NCBI GenBank assembly: GCA_945870185.1
Contig: CAMBRK010000001.1
Location: 62,001-126,000, forward strand
Direction: 5' to 3'
DNA from: Aureispira sp. CCB-QB1
GTDB taxonomy: Bacteria > Bacteroidota > Bacteroidia > Chitinophagales > Saprospiraceae
Length of the DNA: 64,000 nt
A program made the position numbers and the translations under genes. Below the pieces are notes generated by a model. That model saw nothing but the letters and a program-made list of their open reading frames with translations. It was not told the DNA's origin and did no database searches. Numbering within the stretch: the stretch's first letter is position 1; each line of letters begins with the position of its first letter. This document shows positions 5,178-34,716 of this stretch, piece after piece.

Positions 5178-5988
5178 GGGAATAATCGAAATCAGGCTGT
5201 ACTTTTCCCCAAGTGTTTGGATGACTTTAAACTCATCATAAAACACAACACCGAAAATAGGCCAGCCTATGATCCGAAGGATCATTTAAAATTATATATT
5301 TATGGCTATCTCAATTCAATGCGCTCATCTCGAGTATTGGAAAAAGAGTGCTATCGAAACATCGAAGTAGTGTGTTTACTTAAGGATTTAGCGCCTGACC
5401 ATAATACAATTTCAAACTTCCGAAGAGACAATGAAAAAGCCATCAGAAAAGTATTTCAATATATGGTCTGTATTGCCAAAATGTTTGACCTTATCGGTGG
5501 TAAACTCATAGCTAGTGACAGTACAAAACTACGTGCTCAAAACTCAAAGAAAAACATCCAAATGCCAAACTTGTCCAGTCAAAGATTCATGTACAACAAA
5601 TACAAAAGGAAGATTGATTGAAAGATCAGAATACGCAACCTTCATCGAACAAAACAAACGCAATATTGAAGCCGATCCGAAATTATATAAAAGACGCCAG
5701 GCCATCGTTGAACATCCTTATGGTATTATCAAAAGGCAATGGGGATTTTATTACATCATGACGAAAAAAACGATCAAAAGAGCAAGTGCAGATGTGGGCA
5801 TGATATTTACGGCATTTAATTTGCGAAGACTTATCAATATTATTGGCAAAAATGAGTTAAAAAAGTACCTCGAAGGACTTATTCTGACATATTTTTATAT
5901 AATCATCCACCATGAATCAAATAACTCAAAAATAATGCTCTTAAGTTTTTACCCAAATTTCTATCCATCAAAAATAAAATTCGCTTAG
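5178..5988 (+). pseudogene. IS1182-family transposase, internally deleted and frameshifted
   Basis: The frame opens after a stop at 5175-5177 and reads NNRNQAVLFPKCLDDF, the typical start of this transposase group, but jumps straight to RPAYDPKDHLKLYIYGYLN, so part of the N-terminal helical region is missing. The first frame runs to 5621 through the DUF772-like segment SSRVLEKECYRN and the catalytic start IASDSTKLRAQN. The second frame (from about 5515) then supplies CQTCPVKDSC, the cysteine motif found late in these proteins, and the conserved end EHPYGIIKRQWGFYY and FNLRRLINII. The stretch between the first catalytic Asp and the Cys motif, including the other DDE residues, is gone. Not functional. 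Confidence 0.8.
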
Positions 5989-6036
5989 AATGCATCTAAA
6001 TCAGTCGTTTTTACTTACTTTTAAAGACAAAATGGA

Positions 6037-6049
6037 AGTTTTTAGACAG
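6037..6049 (-). repeat. Right terminal inverted repeat of IS1182-like element
   Basis: The 13-mer agtttttagacag is the exact reverse complement of 5091-5103, placing the right end of the element at 6049. Confidence 0.75.
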
Positions 6050-6408
6050 ACTGCCGTTACCAGTAATAGGATAAAGATGTTGAAATTGCACATAAATAAC
6101 AACTAATGATAGTAATACGTATTGAATATTTATGGTAAATAATCAGGTCTAAAAAGCATATAAGAATATGTTATACCTTAAATTTATGAACTATTTAGTT
6201 AAATTTGGTCCATTTATTTATAAAATTGAATAGAAACATGCTGTTTTCTGTTCTTAATTTTTTATATCCAAACCCTGTTTTAAGGATACGATCACATTTT
6301 GACCATAAATACCAACGTATATGATCAAATATAGGTTATTATTACATGAGATCATATTGGGTTAATTAGGGCTTGCTTGGTTTAACCTGGATTATGCATT
6401 AGAAAATC

Positions 6409-6438
6409 CCTGCCTGCCCTACGGTACGGCGAGGCAGG
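6409..6438. repeat. Inverted repeat cctgcct/aggcagg
   Basis: Arms cctgcct (6409-6415) and aggcagg (6432-6438) enclose a GC-rich loop containing the palindrome ggtacc-like cggtacgg. It looks like a REP-type intergenic palindrome. Confidence 0.5.
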
Positions 6439-6491
6439 TATTCCGAAGCTAAACTTCGTGCCTTTGGCTCGACAAGGTCTGCAAATCAGAA

Positions 6492-6505
6492 TCCGCCGCG
6501 GCGGA
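6492..6505. repeat. Perfect 14-bp GC palindrome
   Basis: tccgccgcggcgga is its own reverse complement, and stands out strongly in this AT-rich intergenic sequence. Confidence 0.6.
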
Positions 6506-6612
6506 CTATTTTTCTTCTGTAACCGTAGCGGTGCTACGCTTTTCGAATATAAATAGTTGATTTACCTGCCCGCCTACCATGTAGTGGTCAGGCTGGTTGC
6601 ATTTTAGCTTCT

Positions 6613-6628
6613 TCCCGCTAAAGCGGGA
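6613..6628. repeat. Short hairpin tcccgct-aa-agcggga
   Basis: A 7-bp perfect stem with a 2-base loop. It is one of several palindromes in this gene-free zone. Confidence 0.5.
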
Positions 6629-6887
6629 CAGGCTACGACAAAGTTCTAACGCATAATCCGGGATAAACCAAATCGTAGAAAAAGATGTCATCAGGTGGAT
6701 ACAGAAATCCAAGGATATCCAATGGGATCATAAAAATATTGTGAAGAGAAAAGGGGAATTGTTGAGATTGAAATAAGGAAAAGTAAGTTAAAAAAAACAT
6801 GTAACTACTTCTGCTCTGTCAAATTACATCAAAATCAGATTTCTCACCACTTCGTGGATCTAAATGATGCTTGTAAAATTGTGAAGT

Positions 6888-6936
6888 GGTGGAGAGAAAG
6901 TGGGTTCGACAAATTCGAACCCACTTTCTCTCCACC
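6888..6936. repeat. Perfect 22-bp stem-loop
   Basis: The arms at 6888-6909 and 6915-6936 are exact reverse complements over 22 bp, with loop caaat at 6910-6914. The left arm starts ggtggagagaaagtggg. A second possible stem pairs caccacttc (6845-6853) with gaagtggtg (6883-6891), sharing bases with the main stem, so the two structures are mutually exclusive. No T-run follows on either strand, so it is not a plain intrinsic terminator. Confidence 0.75.
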
Positions 6937-7218
6937 CAAAAAACAACATGAATCGTCATTTCGAAGGAGATTTATCGACTGAGAAACCCATTTTATGACA
7001 TTCATGGTGCGCAAATTTTAAATGTGACAAAGTAGAACTACTCAGGTTAATGTCGTTTTAAAGTGCTTTTATTTGTAAACCTCTGCTGCGTGAAGGATAG
7101 TAGCGAGCACGACCAAAGTGAAACGAAGGAAGTAAAGTGTATAGCCTGACCCATAGGGGCACGCCCAAGTTTCTGAAATAAATCCTTAAGTAAAATCCAT
7201 TGTTGCATACTTTTCTAT

Positions 7219-26060: not shown

Positions 26061-26975
26061 TTAGCTATAACTTTCCTCGACCAAAAAAATATGTGGTAAT
26101 GTAACACAAGCAATAAAAATCAAAAATGTACTAATTATAGAAACATCAGGTAAAACATATTGATGTCCCGCAACCATAGCTACAAAACCCAAAACAGCTA
26201 ATATTGTATAAGGTGCTGCTTGTTGATAATAATGAATGATTGTAAAGTTTGGCCAAAGTTTCTTATAAAAAGTCAGCTGATTCAATAAAGACCCTAGCGA
26301 ATGCCAAAGCGTAAAATAGATTGTAAAACCAACTAACATAGGTGTAAAATAAAACATCACGGACAAAATCAATATTTTACCTATTTCCTTCCAAAGCCTT
26401 TCAAAAGAAATGGAATTAGATATTCTTAACAAAAATACTAAACCTAAATTGATGCAAACGATCCATAGCTGAACATCATTCATAGTAGATTGATTAATGT
26501 CAGGTAAAGTACCAATAACCTGACTAATTACGGTTTTACTTTCATCCCAATGCCACAAAACCGCACCGCCTATAGCAAATAATCCCCAGAAAATATTCAA
26601 GATAATTATAAAAAGCTTAGGCAACGAAACGTTTTCCCAATTTGATTGCCCAAAATGATACGAAGAAATCAATATGAAAATAATGAAAGATACTGCAGGA
26701 AAAATCATCCATAGGACAAGAAAACCAAAGACAGCAAATAAATAGGTCATAAAAAACTTTATAATTTGCTGTTTTGTAAGCAGAGATTTATTTAATCTCT
26801 TAAACAAAAGATAATCTGTAGCACCATGTGGTAGACCTATAGCCAACACTAAAATCCCTAATAGTGGATACTGTATATATTCAAGATAATCAGAAAATAT
26901 CAAGCCCATCAATGCAAAAACTAGCGATATGACTACCACTGGCAAAACAATTTTTATACTTGCACTCTCAGACAT
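26061..26975 (-). CDS. blh: Brp/Blh-family beta-carotene 15,15'-dioxygenase
   Basis: 304 residues, about eight membrane helices. It cleaves beta-carotene to two retinals, the chromophore of rhodopsin. Conserved histidines expected to bind iron are present in GLPHGATDYLL, SSYHFGQSNWE, YFTLWHSLGSL and CVTLPHIFLVE. It lies 90 bp downstream of the rhodopsin gene on the same strand, with a terminator-like hairpin between them. The carotenoid pathway itself (crtEBIY) is not in the window. Confidence 0.92.
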   Translation of the reverse strand: MSESASIKIVLPVVVISLVFALMGLIFSDYLEYIQYPLLGILVLAIGLPHGATDYLLFKRLNKSLLTKQQIIKFFMTYLFAVFGFLVLWMIFPAVSFIIFILISSYHFGQSNWENVSLPKLFIIILNIFWGLFAIGGAVLWHWDESKTVISQVIGTLPDINQSTMNDVQLWIVCINLGLVFLLRISNSISFERLWKEIGKILILSVMFYFTPMLVGFTIYFTLWHSLGSLLNQLTFYKKLWPNFTIIHYYQQAAPYTILAVLGFVAMVAGHQYVLPDVSIISTFLIFIACVTLPHIFLVEESYS

Positions 26976-27065: not shown

Positions 27066-27842
27066 TTATGCGTTGCTTTTTGAAGAGCCAACCGCCAAAC
27101 TATAAATTACTAAACCAAATCCAATTTTGTTGACAGCGTCACCGATGTTATAAATAAGATCCATATTTTTCACATCGATCACATTTCTAAGCCATCCGTC
27201 TGTTTCGATTGCCATGTAACCAAGTGGATAAATTGCCCAACCTACTAGAATAAACCAACCAAGCACTTTGAATGCACTTTGGAGTTTGGCATCATTGGAA
27301 TTTCCAGCCAATTTACTAGCAGAACCAAACCACACTTCATAAACAATACCTGCATAACCTACTGTAGAAATGATACCCCAAAGGACACTATTGTCTCTGT
27401 AAGCTGTTTCTCCTAAATAACCAGCTACAAGCATCAATAATGAGTAACCGATCATTTTCCACAATAAAGAAATTGGAGCACCAAATGCTCTTAAAATTAA
27501 GTAAAACTCTACACACATCAATGGAACCGTAAGTATCCAGTCAATGTATCTGAGTTGGGTAGGAGATTCGCCTGTGGTAATCCACACATCTCTCATGTAA
27601 AAATAATGAACAGCAGCAATCATTGTGATTAATCCTGCTATCAATAAAGATGTCTTCCATTTGCCTTCTACTTGAGACCTTTCAAAGAAAAAGAAAACCG
27701 ACGCGGCAAACATTGCCATGTAACCAATGAAGAAAGTAAAACCAACATAATCATTGGCAGCAAGGGACCCTGCTAAATTAAAAGTTGTGAGTGAAAAGAT
27801 CATAAATATAAATTGTTTGGTGATTCGTTGAATATTCAACAT
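27066..27842 (-). CDS. Proteorhodopsin/xanthorhodopsin-type light-driven proton pump
   Basis: 258 residues: a signal peptide (cleavage likely after GSLA near residue 28) and seven helices. Helix C reads RYIDWILTVPLMCVEFYLIL, giving the D-T-E motif (Asp101, Thr105, Glu112) of outward proton pumps rather than the NDQ sodium or NTQ chloride motifs. Met109 is at the spectral tuning site, consistent with green absorption. His79 (AAVHYFYMRDVW) is the counterion-linked histidine and Lys239 (DAVNKIGFG) binds retinal. In helix E WGIIST places Gly156 where bacteriorhodopsin has Trp138, which is the fenestration residue in carotenoid-binding xanthorhodopsin. Its partner blh is downstream. Confidence 0.95.
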   Translation of the reverse strand: MLNIQRITKQFIFMIFSLTTFNLAGSLAANDYVGFTFFIGYMAMFAASVFFFFERSQVEGKWKTSLLIAGLITMIAAVHYFYMRDVWITTGESPTQLRYIDWILTVPLMCVEFYLILRAFGAPISLLWKMIGYSLLMLVAGYLGETAYRDNSVLWGIISTVGYAGIVYEVWFGSASKLAGNSNDAKLQSAFKVLGWFILVGWAIYPLGYMAIETDGWLRNVIDVKNMDLIYNIGDAVNKIGFGLVIYSLAVGSSKSNA

Positions 27843-28476: not shown

Positions 28477-28512
28477 ATGTTTAAAAAGTTTACAATAACA
28501 GACAAATTATTA

Positions 28513-28520
28513 TTTGTATT
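28513..28520 (+). repeat. Left copy of IS66 target-site duplication
   Basis: tttgtatt directly outside the left end of the element. The right copy is tttgtatc (29857-29864), 7 of 8 bases identical. An 8-bp duplication is what the IS66 family makes. Confidence 0.8.
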
Positions 28521-28536
28521 GTAAGCATCCGACGAA
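28521..28536 (+). repeat. IS66 element inverted repeat, left
   Basis: gtaagcatccgacgaa; the exact complement lies at 29841-29856. Confidence 0.85.
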
Positions 28537-28613
28537 CTACGTTGTCTGATTTAATGATGTAAGATAAGCATCTGGGGATAATGTACCGATCTCAGATGTT
28601 TTGGCTGAAGGAA

Positions 28614-29069
28614 TTAATGATAGGGTCCATACCATATTATGATTCTTTTGATGTATAGCTTGCCTGGTTGTTTGGCAAGTTTTTCAGTGATCTCATCTCC
28701 AATATAAATATCCGCATCATTGTGTTCTGGTTCGATAATTGTCCTCTCTACGGTCAGATGACTACAGCTTTTTAAGAGTTGGCGACCTTGTTGACTGCCT
28801 TTGTTCTTCTTACGTTGATAGGTGATGGTCTCTTTTTCTGATTGGGGCGAACTATTTAATGATTCTTCTTGGTCAGCATCGCCAAAGATATTGAGCTGTC
28901 CTAGATCTATGGTTGGAATATAGCGCTCTGACTTAGGACCAAATACTTGTTTTTTCAACTGTGCAATTAGTTACGAAAGATCATCAATCCTGGCTGATTG
29001 CTCTGCTATTTTAGCATCCTTTTGTGCTAAATCGGCGTCTTTTTGTGCTATGAGTGCTTCCTAATTCAT
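28614..29069 (-). pseudogene. IS66 TnpC (transposase) remnant, truncated
   Basis: The N-terminal coiled coil (ALIAQKDADLAQKDAKIAEQ) is interrupted by stop codons at 29061-29063 and 28971-28973. LKKQVFGPKSERYIP is the diagnostic TnpC motif. It continues for about 110 residues, including part of the region before the DDE domain (VERTIIEPEHNDADIYIGDE), then ends at 28614. The DDE catalytic domain of about 300 residues is absent. Confidence 0.85.
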
Positions 29070-29143
29070 AGCATAAAAGTAAGATGTTTATACGACTATA
29101 TCACAATATTTCAGCCGCTTTTTTTACCTTTTTTAAATAAATT

Positions 29144-29505
29144 TTAGCCCGTCTTTTGCATCTCATATCGCGGTCGCTGATGTAAGCCTAACAGTGAGAT
29201 GCCACTTAGGAGCATCACTAAATGTTGATAACTAATATGCTGTGATTTCCCGTCTATGATACTACTAATTTGCTCATAACAACCACGCTCTAAACGTTTG
29301 CTATAAACCACAAATCCATCTCGATTCCATACCAGCATCTTGACAGTCTGGCGGCTCGTATTAAAAAATACATATACATCACCACTCATTGGATCTGACC
29401 CTAATTCATTACGTACTAAAAACCACTCAAACCATAGTATCCTTTACGCATATCTACAGATGCCTTGTATACATAATACCGCTGGTGTGATCCAAAACCT
29501 AACAT
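29144..29505 (-). pseudogene. IS66 TnpB (Orf2), frameshifted
   Basis: Starts with ATG at 29505, overlapping the tnpA stop by 7 bp, and reads MLGFGSHQRYYVYKASVDMR, KGYYGLSGF and then TAG at 29416-29418. A shift of one base restores LVRNELGSDPMSGDVYVFFN, the conserved TnpB core, and the rest is open to 29144. One lost base near 29418 explains it. Confidence 0.85.
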
Positions 29506-29804
29506 CCTCCTAATGATCTGATTTTATCACCACTCAATACCGTATGCACTTCTAACCTTACTCCATTGGGATAGTGGAGACTGATGTATGGGGTAAATGA
29601 TGGGGTGAATTGGACAGCTACAAACTTGTTATCTTCACTAAATGCCTGTTTACCTGCTAACTTATTGCGCCAATAATAGAAGGTACTCTTCTTAAAAGGT
29701 TTCCCAGCACAAAAAGCTGTTATACTCTGACTAGATCGTTCCCACTCTGAAAGCCATTTGCTAATTTTTTCTTGATCGTATCGCATTGATGATATTTTCA
29801 GCAA
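29499..29804 (-). CDS. IS66 TnpA (Orf1) accessory protein
   Basis: 101 residues, intact: WLSEWERSSQSITAFCAGKP and FKKSTFYYWRNKLAG are the helix-turn-helix pattern of IS66 Orf1. The C-terminus has ISLHYPNGVRLEVH. It is the only complete gene in the element, and overlaps tnpB. Confidence 0.85.
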   Translation of the reverse strand: MLKISSMRYDQEKISKWLSEWERSSQSITAFCAGKPFKKSTFYYWRNKLAGKQAFSEDNKFVAVQFTPSFTPYISLHYPNGVRLEVHTVLSGDKIRSLGGC

Positions 29805-29840
29805 AGGTACGGCCCCATAGGTATCAACTGCAATAAGGGC

Positions 29841-29856
29841 TTCGTCGGATGCTTAC
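29841..29856 (-). repeat. IS66 element inverted repeat, right
   Basis: ttcgtcggatgcttac, the exact complement of 28521-28536. Flanked outside by tttgtatc, the right copy of the target duplication. Confidence 0.85.
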
Positions 29857-29998
29857 TTTGTATCGGCATTCCTTTCACTAATTTTCTCAGAAATATTATA
29901 CTTCAATAGTGGCGCACAGGCAGCTATTTTCATAGGAATTTGGGTGCCGTCAATATTGGCTTTTGGTATTTACTTAAAACTCGTAAACATTAGTAAAA

Positions 29999-30226
29999 AT
30001 GACTGAATTAATTCCATATTTTGCCGCTTTGATAACATTATTGTTTGGAGTAGGTTTTTATTTAGTCCTGCAGCAGTTAAATGAACTAAAGGATTATTCT
30101 ATTGATTGCGATTTTAAATTCATTTATGACATTGATTTTTCATACTTGAGTTATCGTCAGCCGGATTCAGTCATTATTGCCGAGGGCTCGACTGTAACGG
30201 TTGATTGGAAAAGAATGACATTTTGA
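29999..30226 (+). CDS. Small single-helix membrane protein of unknown function
   Basis: 75 residues. One N-terminal helix (YFAALITLLFGVGFYLVLQ), then an acidic, aromatic domain of about 45 residues (DYSIDCDFKFIYDIDFSYLS). The ATG lies inside the end of the interrupted small membrane-protein gene (overlap 29999-30006), so the two were an operon and this one now lacks its normal upstream region because of the IS66 insertion 140 bp away. Family not recognised. Confidence 0.6.
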   Translation: MTELIPYFAALITLLFGVGFYLVLQQLNELKDYSIDCDFKFIYDIDFSYLSYRQPDSVIIAEGSTVTVDWKRMTF

Positions 30227-30351: not shown

Positions 30352-31281
30352 TTATTCGATAGTAGCGTTGGCATTGTTCTTTTCTGACACAATTTGCTTT
30401 TCGAATTTATTGTGAACTATGAGAATTAAAAGTCCAAAAACAATAGCGCACAAAATCAAAAGATTATTTAATAATCCTGTAGTAGAAAAAGATAATCTTA
30501 TCAGTATGGTAGAAATAATAAAACCTGAATTTCTCATAACCTTGTGAAATTCGTCTGTGAGAAAAAAGGAAAATAACAACAGCAAGACATCTGCAAAAAT
30601 CAAAATAGTAAAAAACTGCTCAAAAAAGATATTGTTGATATCTGCAAATGAATTTGTAGTATTTTCTGCCTGATCAATAATTTTTATAAACCAGCTGGCG
30701 AAAGAATAAACTGAGAGTAAAATAAATACCGGTACTAAAGATGTAGCCAAAACTTTCTTAATCTTTACAAATCGTGAAGTAGCTTCAATTTCAGTGTTAG
30801 TCAGAGCAACTGTATTATATCTAATTCTACTTTGAAGATAAAAAAGATAAATAAGAAAAAACATCAATATGGAAGAAGCCAGATCGTAAGTAAACTGTAA
30901 GTCATATTTAATTTCAAACCAATCAGTAGAAAGCGTTAAATTCGAGAGGTCTTTAAACAATCTTCTAATTATAATCAGCGTCATAATTTCATATTGTTTG
31001 CTAATATATGTGGTAAAAGATTTTGGGAGATAATAAATCAACAAATATACTTCATATACAAGAATAAATGAAAAAGGTGTGTAGATAGCAGCAATTGGAT
31101 TATTGAGCAGGTCTGAAGATTCAGTCATTGTGATAATGCCAAAATCCACCAGATAAATTATCATAAGGTGAATTATAAAACTTGCAATAGCTATGGACAA
31201 AATAGCCATCTCACTTCTTTTTTTCGTTTTGTCCGAAAGAAGTCTTTGATAAAATGTCTCAAATAATTCTGAAGAAGGCAT
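30352..31281 (-). CDS. Multi-pass membrane protein of unknown function
   Basis: 309 residues with about eight hydrophobic segments, for example MAILSIAIASFIIHLMIIYLV, FTYDLASSILMFFLIYLFYL, VPVFILLSVYSFASWFIKI, FFTILIFADVLLLLFSFFL and LLILCAIVFGLLILIV. The N-terminal ELFETFYQRLLSDKTKKRSE is cytoplasmic. No transport motif or catalytic residue is recognisable. Monocistronic; 125 bp separates it from the convergent small gene at 29999. Confidence 0.75.
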   Translation of the reverse strand: MPSSELFETFYQRLLSDKTKKRSEMAILSIAIASFIIHLMIIYLVDFGIITMTESSDLLNNPIAAIYTPFSFILVYEVYLLIYYLPKSFTTYISKQYEIMTLIIIRRLFKDLSNLTLSTDWFEIKYDLQFTYDLASSILMFFLIYLFYLQSRIRYNTVALTNTEIEATSRFVKIKKVLATSLVPVFILLSVYSFASWFIKIIDQAENTTNSFADINNIFFEQFFTILIFADVLLLLFSFFLTDEFHKVMRNSGFIISTILIRLSFSTTGLLNNLLILCAIVFGLLILIVHNKFEKQIVSEKNNANATIE

Positions 31282-31874: not shown

Positions 31875-33050
31875 ATGAGAATACCATGCAAAACCATCAT
31901 CGGTACTGCCGCCGAAGGAAGTAAATATTTCCAGAGAAAAAGAATCGAAAGTCTCATCCTGAGAGCTCTTCGAAAAGGAAATTTTGTTCACTTCACTGCA
32001 CCAAGAAGAACTGGTAAAACTTCCATTCTAAAAGAATTGGCCAATGAAACTTATGAAGACTTGGCTTGTATTTATGAAGATATTGAGTCCGATAAAACAT
32101 CGGCCGACTTGTACAAAAGACTCATCAATCTGATCGAAAAGTCTATTAACAAATCAGAATCGTGGCGCAAAAAAATATGGACAACCATCACTTCCAAAAA
32201 AATAAAAGGGATAAATGTCCTTGATGGAAGCATTGATTTGGATGATAAAGAAATAGATTACAAACAAATATTTTTAGATTTAGTCTCAGCCATCAGCCAA
32301 TCAGAAATCAAAATTGTTCTTTTCCTGGATGAATTTCCAGATGTCATCAATAATATCAGAGAAAACGAAGGCGCAGAAACGGCTTTGAATGTATTGCATA
32401 CCCTACGCAGCCTGAGACAAACATCAGATTTTTCGCAGTCTTTTGGTCTGGTGTTTTCTGGTTCTGTTGGTCTTACCCACATCGTAAGGAAAATAGGACG
32501 CTCCAAGTTGCTCAATGATCTGAAAGTGATTAAACTTGATCCAATGACGCCTGAAGAAACCAATAATTTTATTTCTTTCTTGACTGAAGGAGCTACCATG
32601 TATGTACCCATGGAAACGAGAAATCATATCCAAACCAAACTCCGCCAACTTATACCTTATTATATTCAACTCATCATCGAGAAAGGAGACGAATGGACGG
32701 AAGACAATGAAACGGATATACTCACAGTCGCAGATGTTGATCTTATGTACCAAAAACTCATCACCGAAAATGATAAATTTATTGATTGGGTAGATAGGAT
32801 AAAAACGTACTTTTCTGGACATTCTAAATTTTTATTGCAAGTCTTGACAACGATCGCTTATAGAGAAGAAATGGTCATGCAAGAAGTGCTCAACATAGCC
32901 AATCAACACAATGTAGAAGATTTTGAAGAGTTGATCCACCAAGTCTTGATGGCAGATGGATATCTTACCAAAAACGAAGGTGGAAAATTGATTTTTGCTT
33001 CCCCGTTGCTCAGAGATTGGTGGAAGTATCATTATAGCTTATCAAAATAA
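31875..33050 (+). CDS. P-loop ATPase with C-terminal winged-helix region (archaeal-ATPase/STAND-like)
   Basis: 391 residues. Walker A APRRTGKTS at 42-50, Walker B IVLFLDEFP at about 147-155, sensor-like FSGSVGL near 194-200. The second half is helical, and the end (LLQVLTTIAYREEMVMQEV ... FASPLLRDWWKYHY) resembles the winged-helix tail of DUF234/archaeal-type ATPases, where a hydrophobic-rich 'P.(L/F)RDW' motif closes the protein. Cargo and effector are not visible, and there is no membrane helix. Seven bases separate it from the second ATPase gene, so they form one operon. I cannot assign a biological function. Confidence 0.8.
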   Translation: MRIPCKTIIGTAAEGSKYFQRKRIESLILRALRKGNFVHFTAPRRTGKTSILKELANETYEDLACIYEDIESDKTSADLYKRLINLIEKSINKSESWRKKIWTTITSKKIKGINVLDGSIDLDDKEIDYKQIFLDLVSAISQSEIKIVLFLDEFPDVINNIRENEGAETALNVLHTLRSLRQTSDFSQSFGLVFSGSVGLTHIVRKIGRSKLLNDLKVIKLDPMTPEETNNFISFLTEGATMYVPMETRNHIQTKLRQLIPYYIQLIIEKGDEWTEDNETDILTVADVDLMYQKLITENDKFIDWVDRIKTYFSGHSKFLLQVLTTIAYREEMVMQEVLNIANQHNVEDFEELIHQVLMADGYLTKNEGGKLIFASPLLRDWWKYHYSLSK

Positions 33051-33057
33051 TAGAATC

Positions 33058-34716
33058 ATGGTCGAATCATATCATATTACCACGCATCAGGTATCACAAC
33101 TTTCTGCTGACGAGATCAAAAAGGGATTTATCGTAAGGAAAAATCTTTTGAACCGGACGCTTACCAAAATTAATCATACCAATAGAACCGATTCCATTCA
33201 GCATACAGTGTTCGTAGGACCGCGTGGAAGTGGCAAATCATCTATGCTTAATCGAATCAAGGTCGAATATCTGGAGAGTGACAGATTTATTCCCATTTAT
33301 TTGCCTGAAGAACAACCAGGACTTTATAGGTTATTTGATGTTTGGTTGGCCATCATAGATGAAATGAAGGCGCTTGGTTATGATATACATCGCCCCGAAA
33401 TCGACACATCACAAGAAGATTTTTCTTATCTTTCAAAAACAGGATACACGGTCATCAGCGAGTTTCTCCAAAAGGAAAACAAACAAATCATCCTTTTGAT
33501 GGACAATTTAGATCGGGTTTTTAAGAATATAGATGATGATAAAGCACTCTTGAGAGAACTGCTGCAAAACCATAAAGACCTTATTATCATCGGTGGTAGT
33601 ACGGAGATGTCAGAAGATTTTTGGGATTATGGCGACCCATTTTATCAGTTTTTTAAGGTGGTCAGGCTCGAAGACCTGTCCAAAGCTGAAGTACAAGACC
33701 TACTTATCCACTGGAGCGAAGCTAATGATCTACCACAAATCAAAGGCGTACTCCGCACCAATCCCGGCAAAGTAGAAGCCATCCGCCAAATGACAGGTGG
33801 CAATCCACGCACGATGATTATGTTTATCCGATTGCTTGTGGATAATGCGCATGCACAAGGTTTTGAATATCTCAAAGACATCATAGACAAAACGACATCC
33901 ATCTATCAGGAACGTCTCCAACAACTTACACCACAACAACGCAAAATCGTAGTAGAACTAGCATCTATCTGGCAACCAGCCACCGTAGAGCAACTCGTCC
34001 AAACTTGTCTGATGTCAAGCAGCATCATCTCTGCTCAGCTCAATAAACTCCAGAAAAGTAGAATCGTAGAAGCTCTAAAACCCAAAAAAGGAAAGACCGT
34101 CTATCGACTCAAAGAACGCATGTTTAACCTATATCTCATCATGACACAAGCAGGCGCATTGCAGAAAAAAAGAGCAAGATATCTGACTGATTTTTTGGAG
34201 GTTTGGTATGATGGGGAAGAACACATTGCGCACGATTTTGAAAAGGTAAGTGATATTGCAAATGATTCAACTGTGTCTTATTCATCCAAAGAAAATTCGT
34301 TTGACGATCAAATTTTTATACATTATTTAGTAAATGATAAAATAGTCACATCTAAGTTGATACAATCATTCAAGAACGAAGATATGTCCAATCCGTTAAT
34401 GAATATCTATGATCTTTGGTTGGGAAATTTTGAGATGTATCAGCATCAAAGAGAATTAATACCTTATAAACTCATGGAATCAAACCATGCAGGTACTTAT
34501 CTAAAAGAATCTTTAGTTCATTATCAAAATGACTGGATCATTCAGCTTTTTGACAAAAACTTCGAATTAAAACAAAAATTTGAACCCATGTATTTTGCAG
34601 CATTAATATTGAAAGATTCGAATTTGAATTTAAATTTAATAGTGCCTGAGCCAATGCTGGAATCGGTGTTAGATGTGATTAAGTATGTGAGGGTGAGACA
34701 AGAGTTTTATTATTAG
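33058..34716 (+). CDS. Second P-loop ATPase with winged-helix domain (STAND-like)
   Basis: 552 residues from ATG 33058; the frame is open from 32995, but that part overlaps the first gene. Walker A GPRGSGKSS at 54-62, Walker B IILLMDNLD near 144-152, sensor LIIIGGSTEM near 180. After the ATPase module (to about residue 290) there is a winged-helix (QRKIVVELASIWQPATVEQL), then about 180 residues of unrecognised helical sequence that could be a target-binding or effector domain. The Walker B acidic pair is D-x-x-D, not DE. The two ATPases differ enough not to be recent duplicates. Confidence 0.8.
   Translation: MVESYHITTHQVSQLSADEIKKGFIVRKNLLNRTLTKINHTNRTDSIQHTVFVGPRGSGKSSMLNRIKVEYLESDRFIPIYLPEEQPGLYRLFDVWLAIIDEMKALGYDIHRPEIDTSQEDFSYLSKTGYTVISEFLQKENKQIILLMDNLDRVFKNIDDDKALLRELLQNHKDLIIIGGSTEMSEDFWDYGDPFYQFFKVVRLEDLSKAEVQDLLIHWSEANDLPQIKGVLRTNPGKVEAIRQMTGGNPRTMIMFIRLLVDNAHAQGFEYLKDIIDKTTSIYQERLQQLTPQQRKIVVELASIWQPATVEQLVQTCLMSSSIISAQLNKLQKSRIVEALKPKKGKTVYRLKERMFNLYLIMTQAGALQKKRARYLTDFLEVWYDGEEHIAHDFEKVSDIANDSTVSYSSKENSFDDQIFIHYLVNDKIVTSKLIQSFKNEDMSNPLMNIYDLWLGNFEMYQHQRELIPYKLMESNHAGTYLKESLVHYQNDWIIQLFDKNFELKQKFEPMYFAALILKDSNLNLNLIVPEPMLESVLDVIKYVRVRQEFYY

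What the first reader, a model, noticed from the sequence alone, without database searches (positions are those of the whole stretch)
28477..30006. IS66-type element caught splitting a small membrane-protein gene
Perfect 16-bp inverted repeats, a 7-of-8 match in the 8-bp target duplication, and an open reading frame that is restored when the element and one target copy are removed. The element has itself decayed (tnpB frameshift, tnpC stops and a large deletion), so the insertion is not recent, yet the reconstructed host gene still reads through. The downstream small gene shares its operon.
Basis: seen in the sequence. Interest (0 to 1): 0.6.

Follow-up and report, generated by a model that had tools for sequence, protein, structure and literature searches.

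The report
Broken small-protein operon beside a rhodopsin
A decayed jumping element has split a tiny membrane-protein gene next to a light-driven rhodopsin gene; the rejoined gene belongs to a widespread, unnamed pair of tiny membrane proteins, and the gene behind it is a second casualty, fused to the tail of another gene.

Summary
A 1,336-bp IS66-type remnant (28521-29856) has perfect 16-bp inverted repeats, a 7-of-8 target duplication, an open tnpA, a frameshifted tnpB, and a tnpC with a stop and no DDE domain. Removing it and one target copy rejoins a 61-codon frame. In 80 of 80 a second tiny gene follows, 71 with the same 8-nt overlap.

Two corrections. (1) The 'downstream small gene' (29999-30226) is a chimera: about 26 codons of that second gene fused in frame to the last ~49 codons of a DUF2071 gene. 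Both genes of the pair are damaged; no second copy was found. (2) 'Not recent' is unproven: the element may have been defective before it landed.

New lead: rhodopsin lies near the pair in 6 of 80 named loci (about 0.3 expected by a rough estimate), and right beside it, divergently as here, in five genomes of one other family. Photolyase-type genes recur too. A light-related membrane role is inferred, not shown; a third or more of carrier genomes have no detected rhodopsin.

The parts
28477..28520 (+). 5' fragment of gene1 (small membrane protein): 14 codons and 2 bases, ending in the left target copy; runs into a stop at the edge of the element
28513..28520 (.). left target-site copy TTTGTATT
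28521..29856 (-). IS66-type element remnant, 1,336 bp, genes reading leftwards
28521..28536 (.). left inverted repeat, 16 bp, begins GTAAGC
28614..28958 (-). tnpC N-terminal remnant (PF13007, 22.2 bits, just under cut-off 22.9); an in-frame stop precedes it and the DDE domain is missing
29144..29505 (-). tnpB, frameshifted; 3' part 29144-29389 matches PF05717 (E 2.2e-15)
   Evidence: start codon read by eye
29499..29804 (-). tnpA, open; NF047593 IS66_ISAeme5_TnpA, 62.1 bits against cut-off 28
29841..29856 (.). right inverted repeat, 16 bp
29857..29864 (.). right target-site copy TTTGTATC
29857..30006 (+). 3' fragment of gene1; stop TGA at 30004-30006
29999..30226 (+). chimeric ORF, 75 codons: gene2 start (about codons 1-26, to about 30076) fused in frame to the last ~49 codons of a DUF2071 gene (about 30077-30226); starts 8 nt inside gene1's end
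30352..31281 (-). 309-residue predicted helical membrane protein, open frame, of a family without a Pfam or NCBIfam name that recurs beside gene1-gene2 in other genomes
27066..27842 (-). type-1 rhodopsin (PF01036, E 2.3e-41), divergent from gene1, 634 bp between the start codons' outer ends
26061..26975 (-). blh-type beta-carotene 15,15'-dioxygenase (PF15461, E 4.5e-48)

Best explanation
A two-gene operon for tiny membrane proteins has been broken twice. Gene1 (61 residues; a relative is modelled as a two-helix hairpin) was split after 14 codons by an IS66-type element that duplicated 8 bp and lacks its own transposase core. Gene2 (29-35 residues in most relatives, one hydrophobic stretch), whose start overlaps gene1's end by 8 nt, lost its tail when an in-frame deletion or equivalent rearrangement joined it to the last ~49 codons of a downstream DUF2071 gene. 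Which lesion came first is not known. Inferred: the intact pair is translated together, sits in the membrane, and serves a light-related function alongside rhodopsin, retinal synthesis or photolyase genes; this rests on gene neighbourhood only. In this bacterium the pair is probably non-functional, while rhodopsin, blh and photolyase-type genes remain. The confidence given is for the two lesions; the light role is scored in the section on the most novel reading.
For: Repeats, target copies and rejoined frame. IS66 protein matches. Rejoined protein 75% and 73% identical to its two best intact relatives in 59 other nearby genomes, 5 of which had a match; 62-89%, median 72%, to the 80 named loci kept of 570 confirmed. 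Gene2 follows gene1 in 80 of 80, 71 with the identical 8-nt overlap. The two halves of the downstream ORF match separate proteins, gene2 and DUF2071, which lie in that order on one strand in L094 (= G039, L009), L048, L067, L073 and L092. No other gene1, gene2 or DUF2071 N-terminus was found in the genome (99% complete). For the light role: rhodopsin in 6 of 80 named loci against about 0.3 expected if every genome had one per 3.5 Mb; rhodopsin 0.1-1.4 kb from gene1 on the opposite strand in G449, G495, G660, G679 and G767.
Against: Against the light role: 11 of 26 gene1 genomes in the order sample and 11 of 33 in the phylum sample have no detected rhodopsin. The five genomes with adjacent rhodopsin all belong to one family (f44), three of them to one genus. 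Co-occurrence counts are not corrected for ancestry; f44 supplies 18 of the 33. 44 of 80 named loci showed none of the searched light genes nor the 309-residue family, though only 33 of 80 have both flanks of about 9 kb. Against the reconstruction: no intact allele of this very locus was seen; gene1 was not found in any of the 9 other genomes of the genus searched, two of them under 85% complete.
Confidence: 0.88

Rival explanations
1. The element was already defective when it landed and was moved in trans by a related full-length element, so the insertion may be quite recent. (A variant of the best explanation, on age and mechanism.)
For: Ends are perfect although the genes are broken; the two host fragments have no stop or frameshift and only one target base differs; five other contigs break off inside a multicopy element whose first 24 bp are 92% identical to the left end, one of them with the C-terminal part of an IS66 DDE domain.
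Against: No second copy of this deleted element in the genome; the related element has one mismatch in the repeat and no further clear DNA similarity in the stretches at hand, so cross-mobilisation is possible, not shown.
Confidence: 0.45
2. The 75-codon ORF is a working fusion protein rather than debris.
For: The fusion is in frame, has no stop, and keeps the hydrophobic stretch.
Against: It lies behind a 1.3-kb insertion in the gene it normally overlaps; it keeps only 49 of ~238 DUF2071 residues; in the 80 named loci every gene2 frame ends within 54 codons, so none is fused like this.
Confidence: 0.08
3. Assembly artefact: unrelated stretches joined at the element or at the fusion.
For: The assembly has 168 contigs and five contigs end inside a related element.
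Against: The element has matching target copies and its flanks rejoin to one conserved protein; the fusion joins, in frame, two genes that lie in the same order in relatives; both lie well inside a 146-kb contig.
Confidence: 0.04
4. The gene pair is a general small-membrane-protein operon with no special tie to light; its neighbours reflect shared ancestry and habitat.
For: 11 of 26 and 11 of 33 gene1 genomes have no detected rhodopsin; 54 of 80 named loci show no rhodopsin, blh, DUF2071 or photolyase-cluster gene in their flanks; an SDR-type family, an ABC-ATPase and other families not known to concern light also recur; no control gene was run for the neighbourhood counts.
Against: Rhodopsin in 6 of 80 named loci from records with different names (L051, L062, L072, L073, L081, L085); adjacent divergent rhodopsin in five genomes of family f44 and here; photolyase-type genes, DUF2805 and blh among the recurrent neighbours.
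Confidence: 0.45

Closest known systems
IS66 family of insertion sequences (ISAeme5-type TnpA)
   Same: TnpA and TnpB matches, gene order tnpA-tnpB-tnpC, ends beginning GTAAGC, 8-bp target duplication (IS66 traits as stated in passages of PMC11946415)
   Different: 1.3 kb only; tnpB frameshifted, tnpC with a stop and no DDE domain; perfect repeat of 16 bp beginning GTAAGCA, against 20-30 bp beginning GTAAGCG in that paper
Photolyase gene cluster enriched in rhodopsin-bearing marine Flavobacteriia (PMC5932025, 2018; 12 of 20 matching passages seen)
   Same: Photolyase-type genes recur near the gene pair; rhodopsin-bearing genomes are enriched
   Different: No pair of tiny membrane proteins is named in the passages seen; its supplementary tables were not seen
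DUF2071 (PF09844)
   Same: Residues 27-75 of the chimeric ORF match its C-terminal end
   Different: About 190 N-terminal residues were not found anywhere in the genome

Membership tests
IS66 insertion sequence | Terminal inverted repeats beginning GTAAGC | tested here: met
   16/16 bp, GTAAGCATCCGACGAA; lead sequence GTAAGCG and 20-30 bp given in PMC11946415, so length is shorter
IS66 insertion sequence | 8-bp target duplication | tested here: met
   7 of 8 bases identical
IS66 insertion sequence | TnpA and TnpB accessory proteins in order | tested here: met
   TnpA 62.1 bits over cut-off 28; TnpB 56.8 bits over cut-off 26.6 in Pfam but 48.2 just under 50 in NCBIfam
IS66 insertion sequence | TnpC with a DDE catalytic domain (PF03050) | tested here: not met
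   Absent from the element; the one match in the genome is on contig C156. Filed as a deleted IS66 remnant, not as a complete member
gene1-gene2 small-protein pair (unnamed) | gene1: about 60 residues, two hydrophobic stretches, E24 and the G-x-W-V-P motif | tested here: met
   Rejoined sequence aligns over its whole length and keeps these residues; in a 23-row alignment without it G39, W41, V42, P43 are invariant and E24 nearly so
gene1-gene2 small-protein pair (unnamed) | gene2 start overlapping gene1's end | tested here: met
   ATG at 29999, 8-nt overlap, as in 71 of 80 loci
gene1-gene2 small-protein pair (unnamed) | gene2 ending after 29-54 codons | tested here: not met
   The frame runs to 75 codons into a DUF2071 tail

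The most novel reading that the evidence does not exclude
Gene1 and gene2, in some lineages with the 309-residue membrane protein found at 30352-31281, form an undescribed membrane module that works with microbial rhodopsins or their wider light physiology in Bacteroidota and Opitutae; this genome is a natural mutant that kept the rhodopsin and lost the module.
Probability: 0.3. Interest if true: 0.72.

Novelty: new member of a known kind. Interest (0 to 1): 0.42.

Why it matters
The insertion itself is ordinary. What it points at is less so: a widespread pair of tiny co-encoded membrane proteins for which no Pfam or NCBIfam family was found, recurring near rhodopsin, retinal-synthesis and photolyase-type genes. 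If the tie to light holds, it would be a candidate accessory module for light use in aquatic bacteria, and genomes such as this one would show what is lost without it.

Tried and rejected
Chance repeat: rejected. Second intact copy of gene1, gene2 or DUF2071 in the genome: none found. Inversion moving the DUF2071 N-terminus elsewhere: not supported, since no N-terminal match was found in the genome, although DUF2805 and photolyase-type genes, which adjoin DUF2071 in G039, lie about 29 kb away on the same contig. Distant identity of gene1: no Pfam or NCBIfam family and no PDB chain; one weak PHROG hit (E 0.004) and, for a distant relative, one Pfam hit below cut-off (PF07695, E 0.0018), neither used. 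Structure of the 309-residue neighbour: AlphaFold2 model too poor (pLDDT 57), so no fold search was run. Papers: six searches on rhodopsin gene context and IS66; none of the listings shown names this gene pair, but only passages of three papers were seen, so absence from print is not claimed. Rows dropped before a count: in the order sample 45 of 396 genomes had a gene1-profile hit at E up to 0.001, of which the 26 with E below 1e-14 were counted; for rhodopsin the 77 over the family's cut-off of the 79 listed were used. In the phylum sample the cut was E 1e-10 for both.

Full report
What is there. The window lies in a 4.9-Mb assembly of 168 contigs, 99% complete. The window's genome is therefore taken to be a member of the Saprospiraceae (inference). 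Between a rhodopsin gene (27066-27842, minus) with blh beside it (26061-26975, minus) and a 309-residue membrane-protein gene (30352-31281, minus) lies the split gene.

The element. It spans 28521-29856, with perfect 16-bp inverted repeats. One other perfect 16-bp inverted pair at 500-4000 bp exists in the window and its flanks match 3/8; here they match 7/8. TnpA is open and matches NF047593 well over cut-off; TnpB matches PF05717 in its 3' part and is frameshifted; the TnpC N-terminus is a match just under cut-off, is preceded by an in-frame stop, and the DDE domain is missing. Passages of PMC11946415 give IS66 ends beginning GTAAGCG, repeats of 20-30 bp and 8-bp duplications; this element begins GTAAGCA with 16 bp perfect. 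It is filed as a deleted IS66 remnant.

Is the insertion old? But the host fragments carry no stop or frameshift and one target base differs. Seven places in the genome carry the repeat with at most one mismatch: the two ends here and five contigs that share an identical stretch of about 146 bp beginning GTATGCATCCGACGAA and then end. That is a multicopy element whose first 24 bp are 92% identical to the left end here; on one of the five contigs the C-terminal part of an IS66 DDE domain follows. A defective copy moved in trans is thus possible. The age is left open.

The host gene. The rejoined protein has 61 residues. Of 60 nearby genomes including this one, 6 had a match; the best two others are 75% and 73% identical. 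The rejoined protein is 62-89% identical to these 80, median 72%. The overlap is the same 8 nt in 71 of 80, and lengths are 29-38 codons in 78 and 54 in 2. At 17 more distant places in 16 genomes a short frame also starts there, in 13 of 17 overlapping by 8 or 4 nt; homology was not tested for these and a short frame alone could be chance. A relative of gene1 is modelled as two helices (pLDDT 84). No Pfam or NCBIfam family and no PDB chain matched gene1.

The downstream gene. The 75-codon ORF at 29999-30226 matches in two halves. Its first ~30 residues match gene2 next to gene1; residues 27-75 match the end of proteins of about 240 residues, which are DUF2071 (PF09844, E 1e-51 for the G039 copy). 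In G039 the order is gene1, gene2, DUF2071, DUF2805 and then cryptochrome/photolyase-type genes (the cryptochrome/photolyase names are recalled). DUF2071 lies downstream of gene1-gene2 on the same strand also in L048, L067, L073 and L092; in L048 about 2.5 kb away with an SDR-type gene between. The window's genome has DUF2071 only as these last 49 residues. So gene2's end and most of DUF2071 were lost in one in-frame deletion or an equivalent rearrangement, with the junction near codon 26. DUF2805 and photolyase-type genes survive about 29 kb away on the same contig, among fragments that look like transposase (the transposase reading was not tested).

Context and function. One protein per family was searched in the 80 named loci (tblastn, E 1e-4): DUF2071 in 14, the 309-residue family in 11, cryptochrome-type in 11, photolyase-related in 11, DUF2805 in 10, a second photolyase in 9, a flavin-reductase-type protein in 7, rhodopsin in 6, blh in 5; the photolyase-type queries are related to one another, so these counts overlap. 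An SDR-type query hit 16, but this is a large family. 26 of 80 had at least one of rhodopsin, blh, DUF2071 or a photolyase-cluster gene, 36 of 80 with the 309-residue family added; only 33 of 80 loci have about 9 kb on both sides. About 0.3 rhodopsins would be expected if each genome had one per 3.5 Mb, a rough yardstick; no such estimate or control was made for the other families. In 396 genomes of the order, 26 have a strong gene1 hit and 15 of these a rhodopsin, against 62 of 370 others. In 395 genomes of the phylum, gene1 is in 33, rhodopsin in 61, both in 22, that is 39 of 362 without gene1; one family (f44) supplies 18 of the 33, and outside it 8 of 15 have rhodopsin. These tallies include the window's genome and are not corrected for ancestry. 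Position is more telling: in G449, G495, G660, G679 and G767 gene1 lies 0.1-1.4 kb from a rhodopsin on the opposite strand, as in the window (634 bp), but all five belong to f44 and three to one genus. In G034, of the window's own family, rhodopsin lies 2.8 kb away on the same strand. Against this, 11 of 26 and 11 of 33 gene1 genomes have no detected rhodopsin. In 12 passages seen of PMC5932025 a photolyase cluster is enriched in rhodopsin-bearing Flavobacteriia; no such tiny pair is named there. A light-related membrane role for the pair is therefore a reasoned guess, put at 0.30.

The 309-residue neighbour has an open frame 31-63% identical to 12 relatives. In L054, L077, L079, L080, L105, L106 and L146 the relative lies directly upstream of gene1 on the same strand. 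No Pfam, NCBIfam or PDB match above cut-off was found, and its model is too poor to interpret.

Verdict. Observation confirmed; interpretation right for the split gene, incomplete for the operon, unproven for age. An ordinary insertion marks an unusual, unnamed gene pair.

Noticed in passing
window 30352-31281: 309-residue membrane protein of a family without a Pfam, NCBIfam or PDB match over cut-off; relatives lie beside the gene pair, often directly upstream, in other genomes.
   Followed up: partly
L028-L032 (contigs C75, C97, C122, C150, C156): Five contigs end inside an identical multicopy element beginning GTATGCATCCGACGAA; one holds the end of an IS66 DDE transposase.
   Followed up: partly
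L024 (contig C1, about 55-61.5 kb), just left of the window: Photolyase/cryptochrome-type genes and DUF2805 on the minus strand, with fragments between them that look like transposase.
   Followed up: partly
window 27066-27842: Rhodopsin carries R-Y-I-D-W-I-L-T-V-P-L-M-C-V-E, which reads as the D-T-E pattern of proton-pumping proteorhodopsins (pattern recalled, not tested; sequence).
   Followed up: no
window 5375-7194: Second perfect 16-bp inverted pair (TTTACTTAAGGATTTA) around broken ORFs that look transposase-like; flanks match only 3/8.
   Followed up: no
window 31875-34716: Two overlapping ORFs with P-loop ATPase matches side by side (AAA_22 over cut-off in the first; ATPase_2 and an HTH over cut-off in the second).
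   Followed up: no
L138-L140: More distant gene1-like proteins (E about 1e-9), two of the three followed by a different-looking short gene: the family may be broader than counted here.
   Followed up: no
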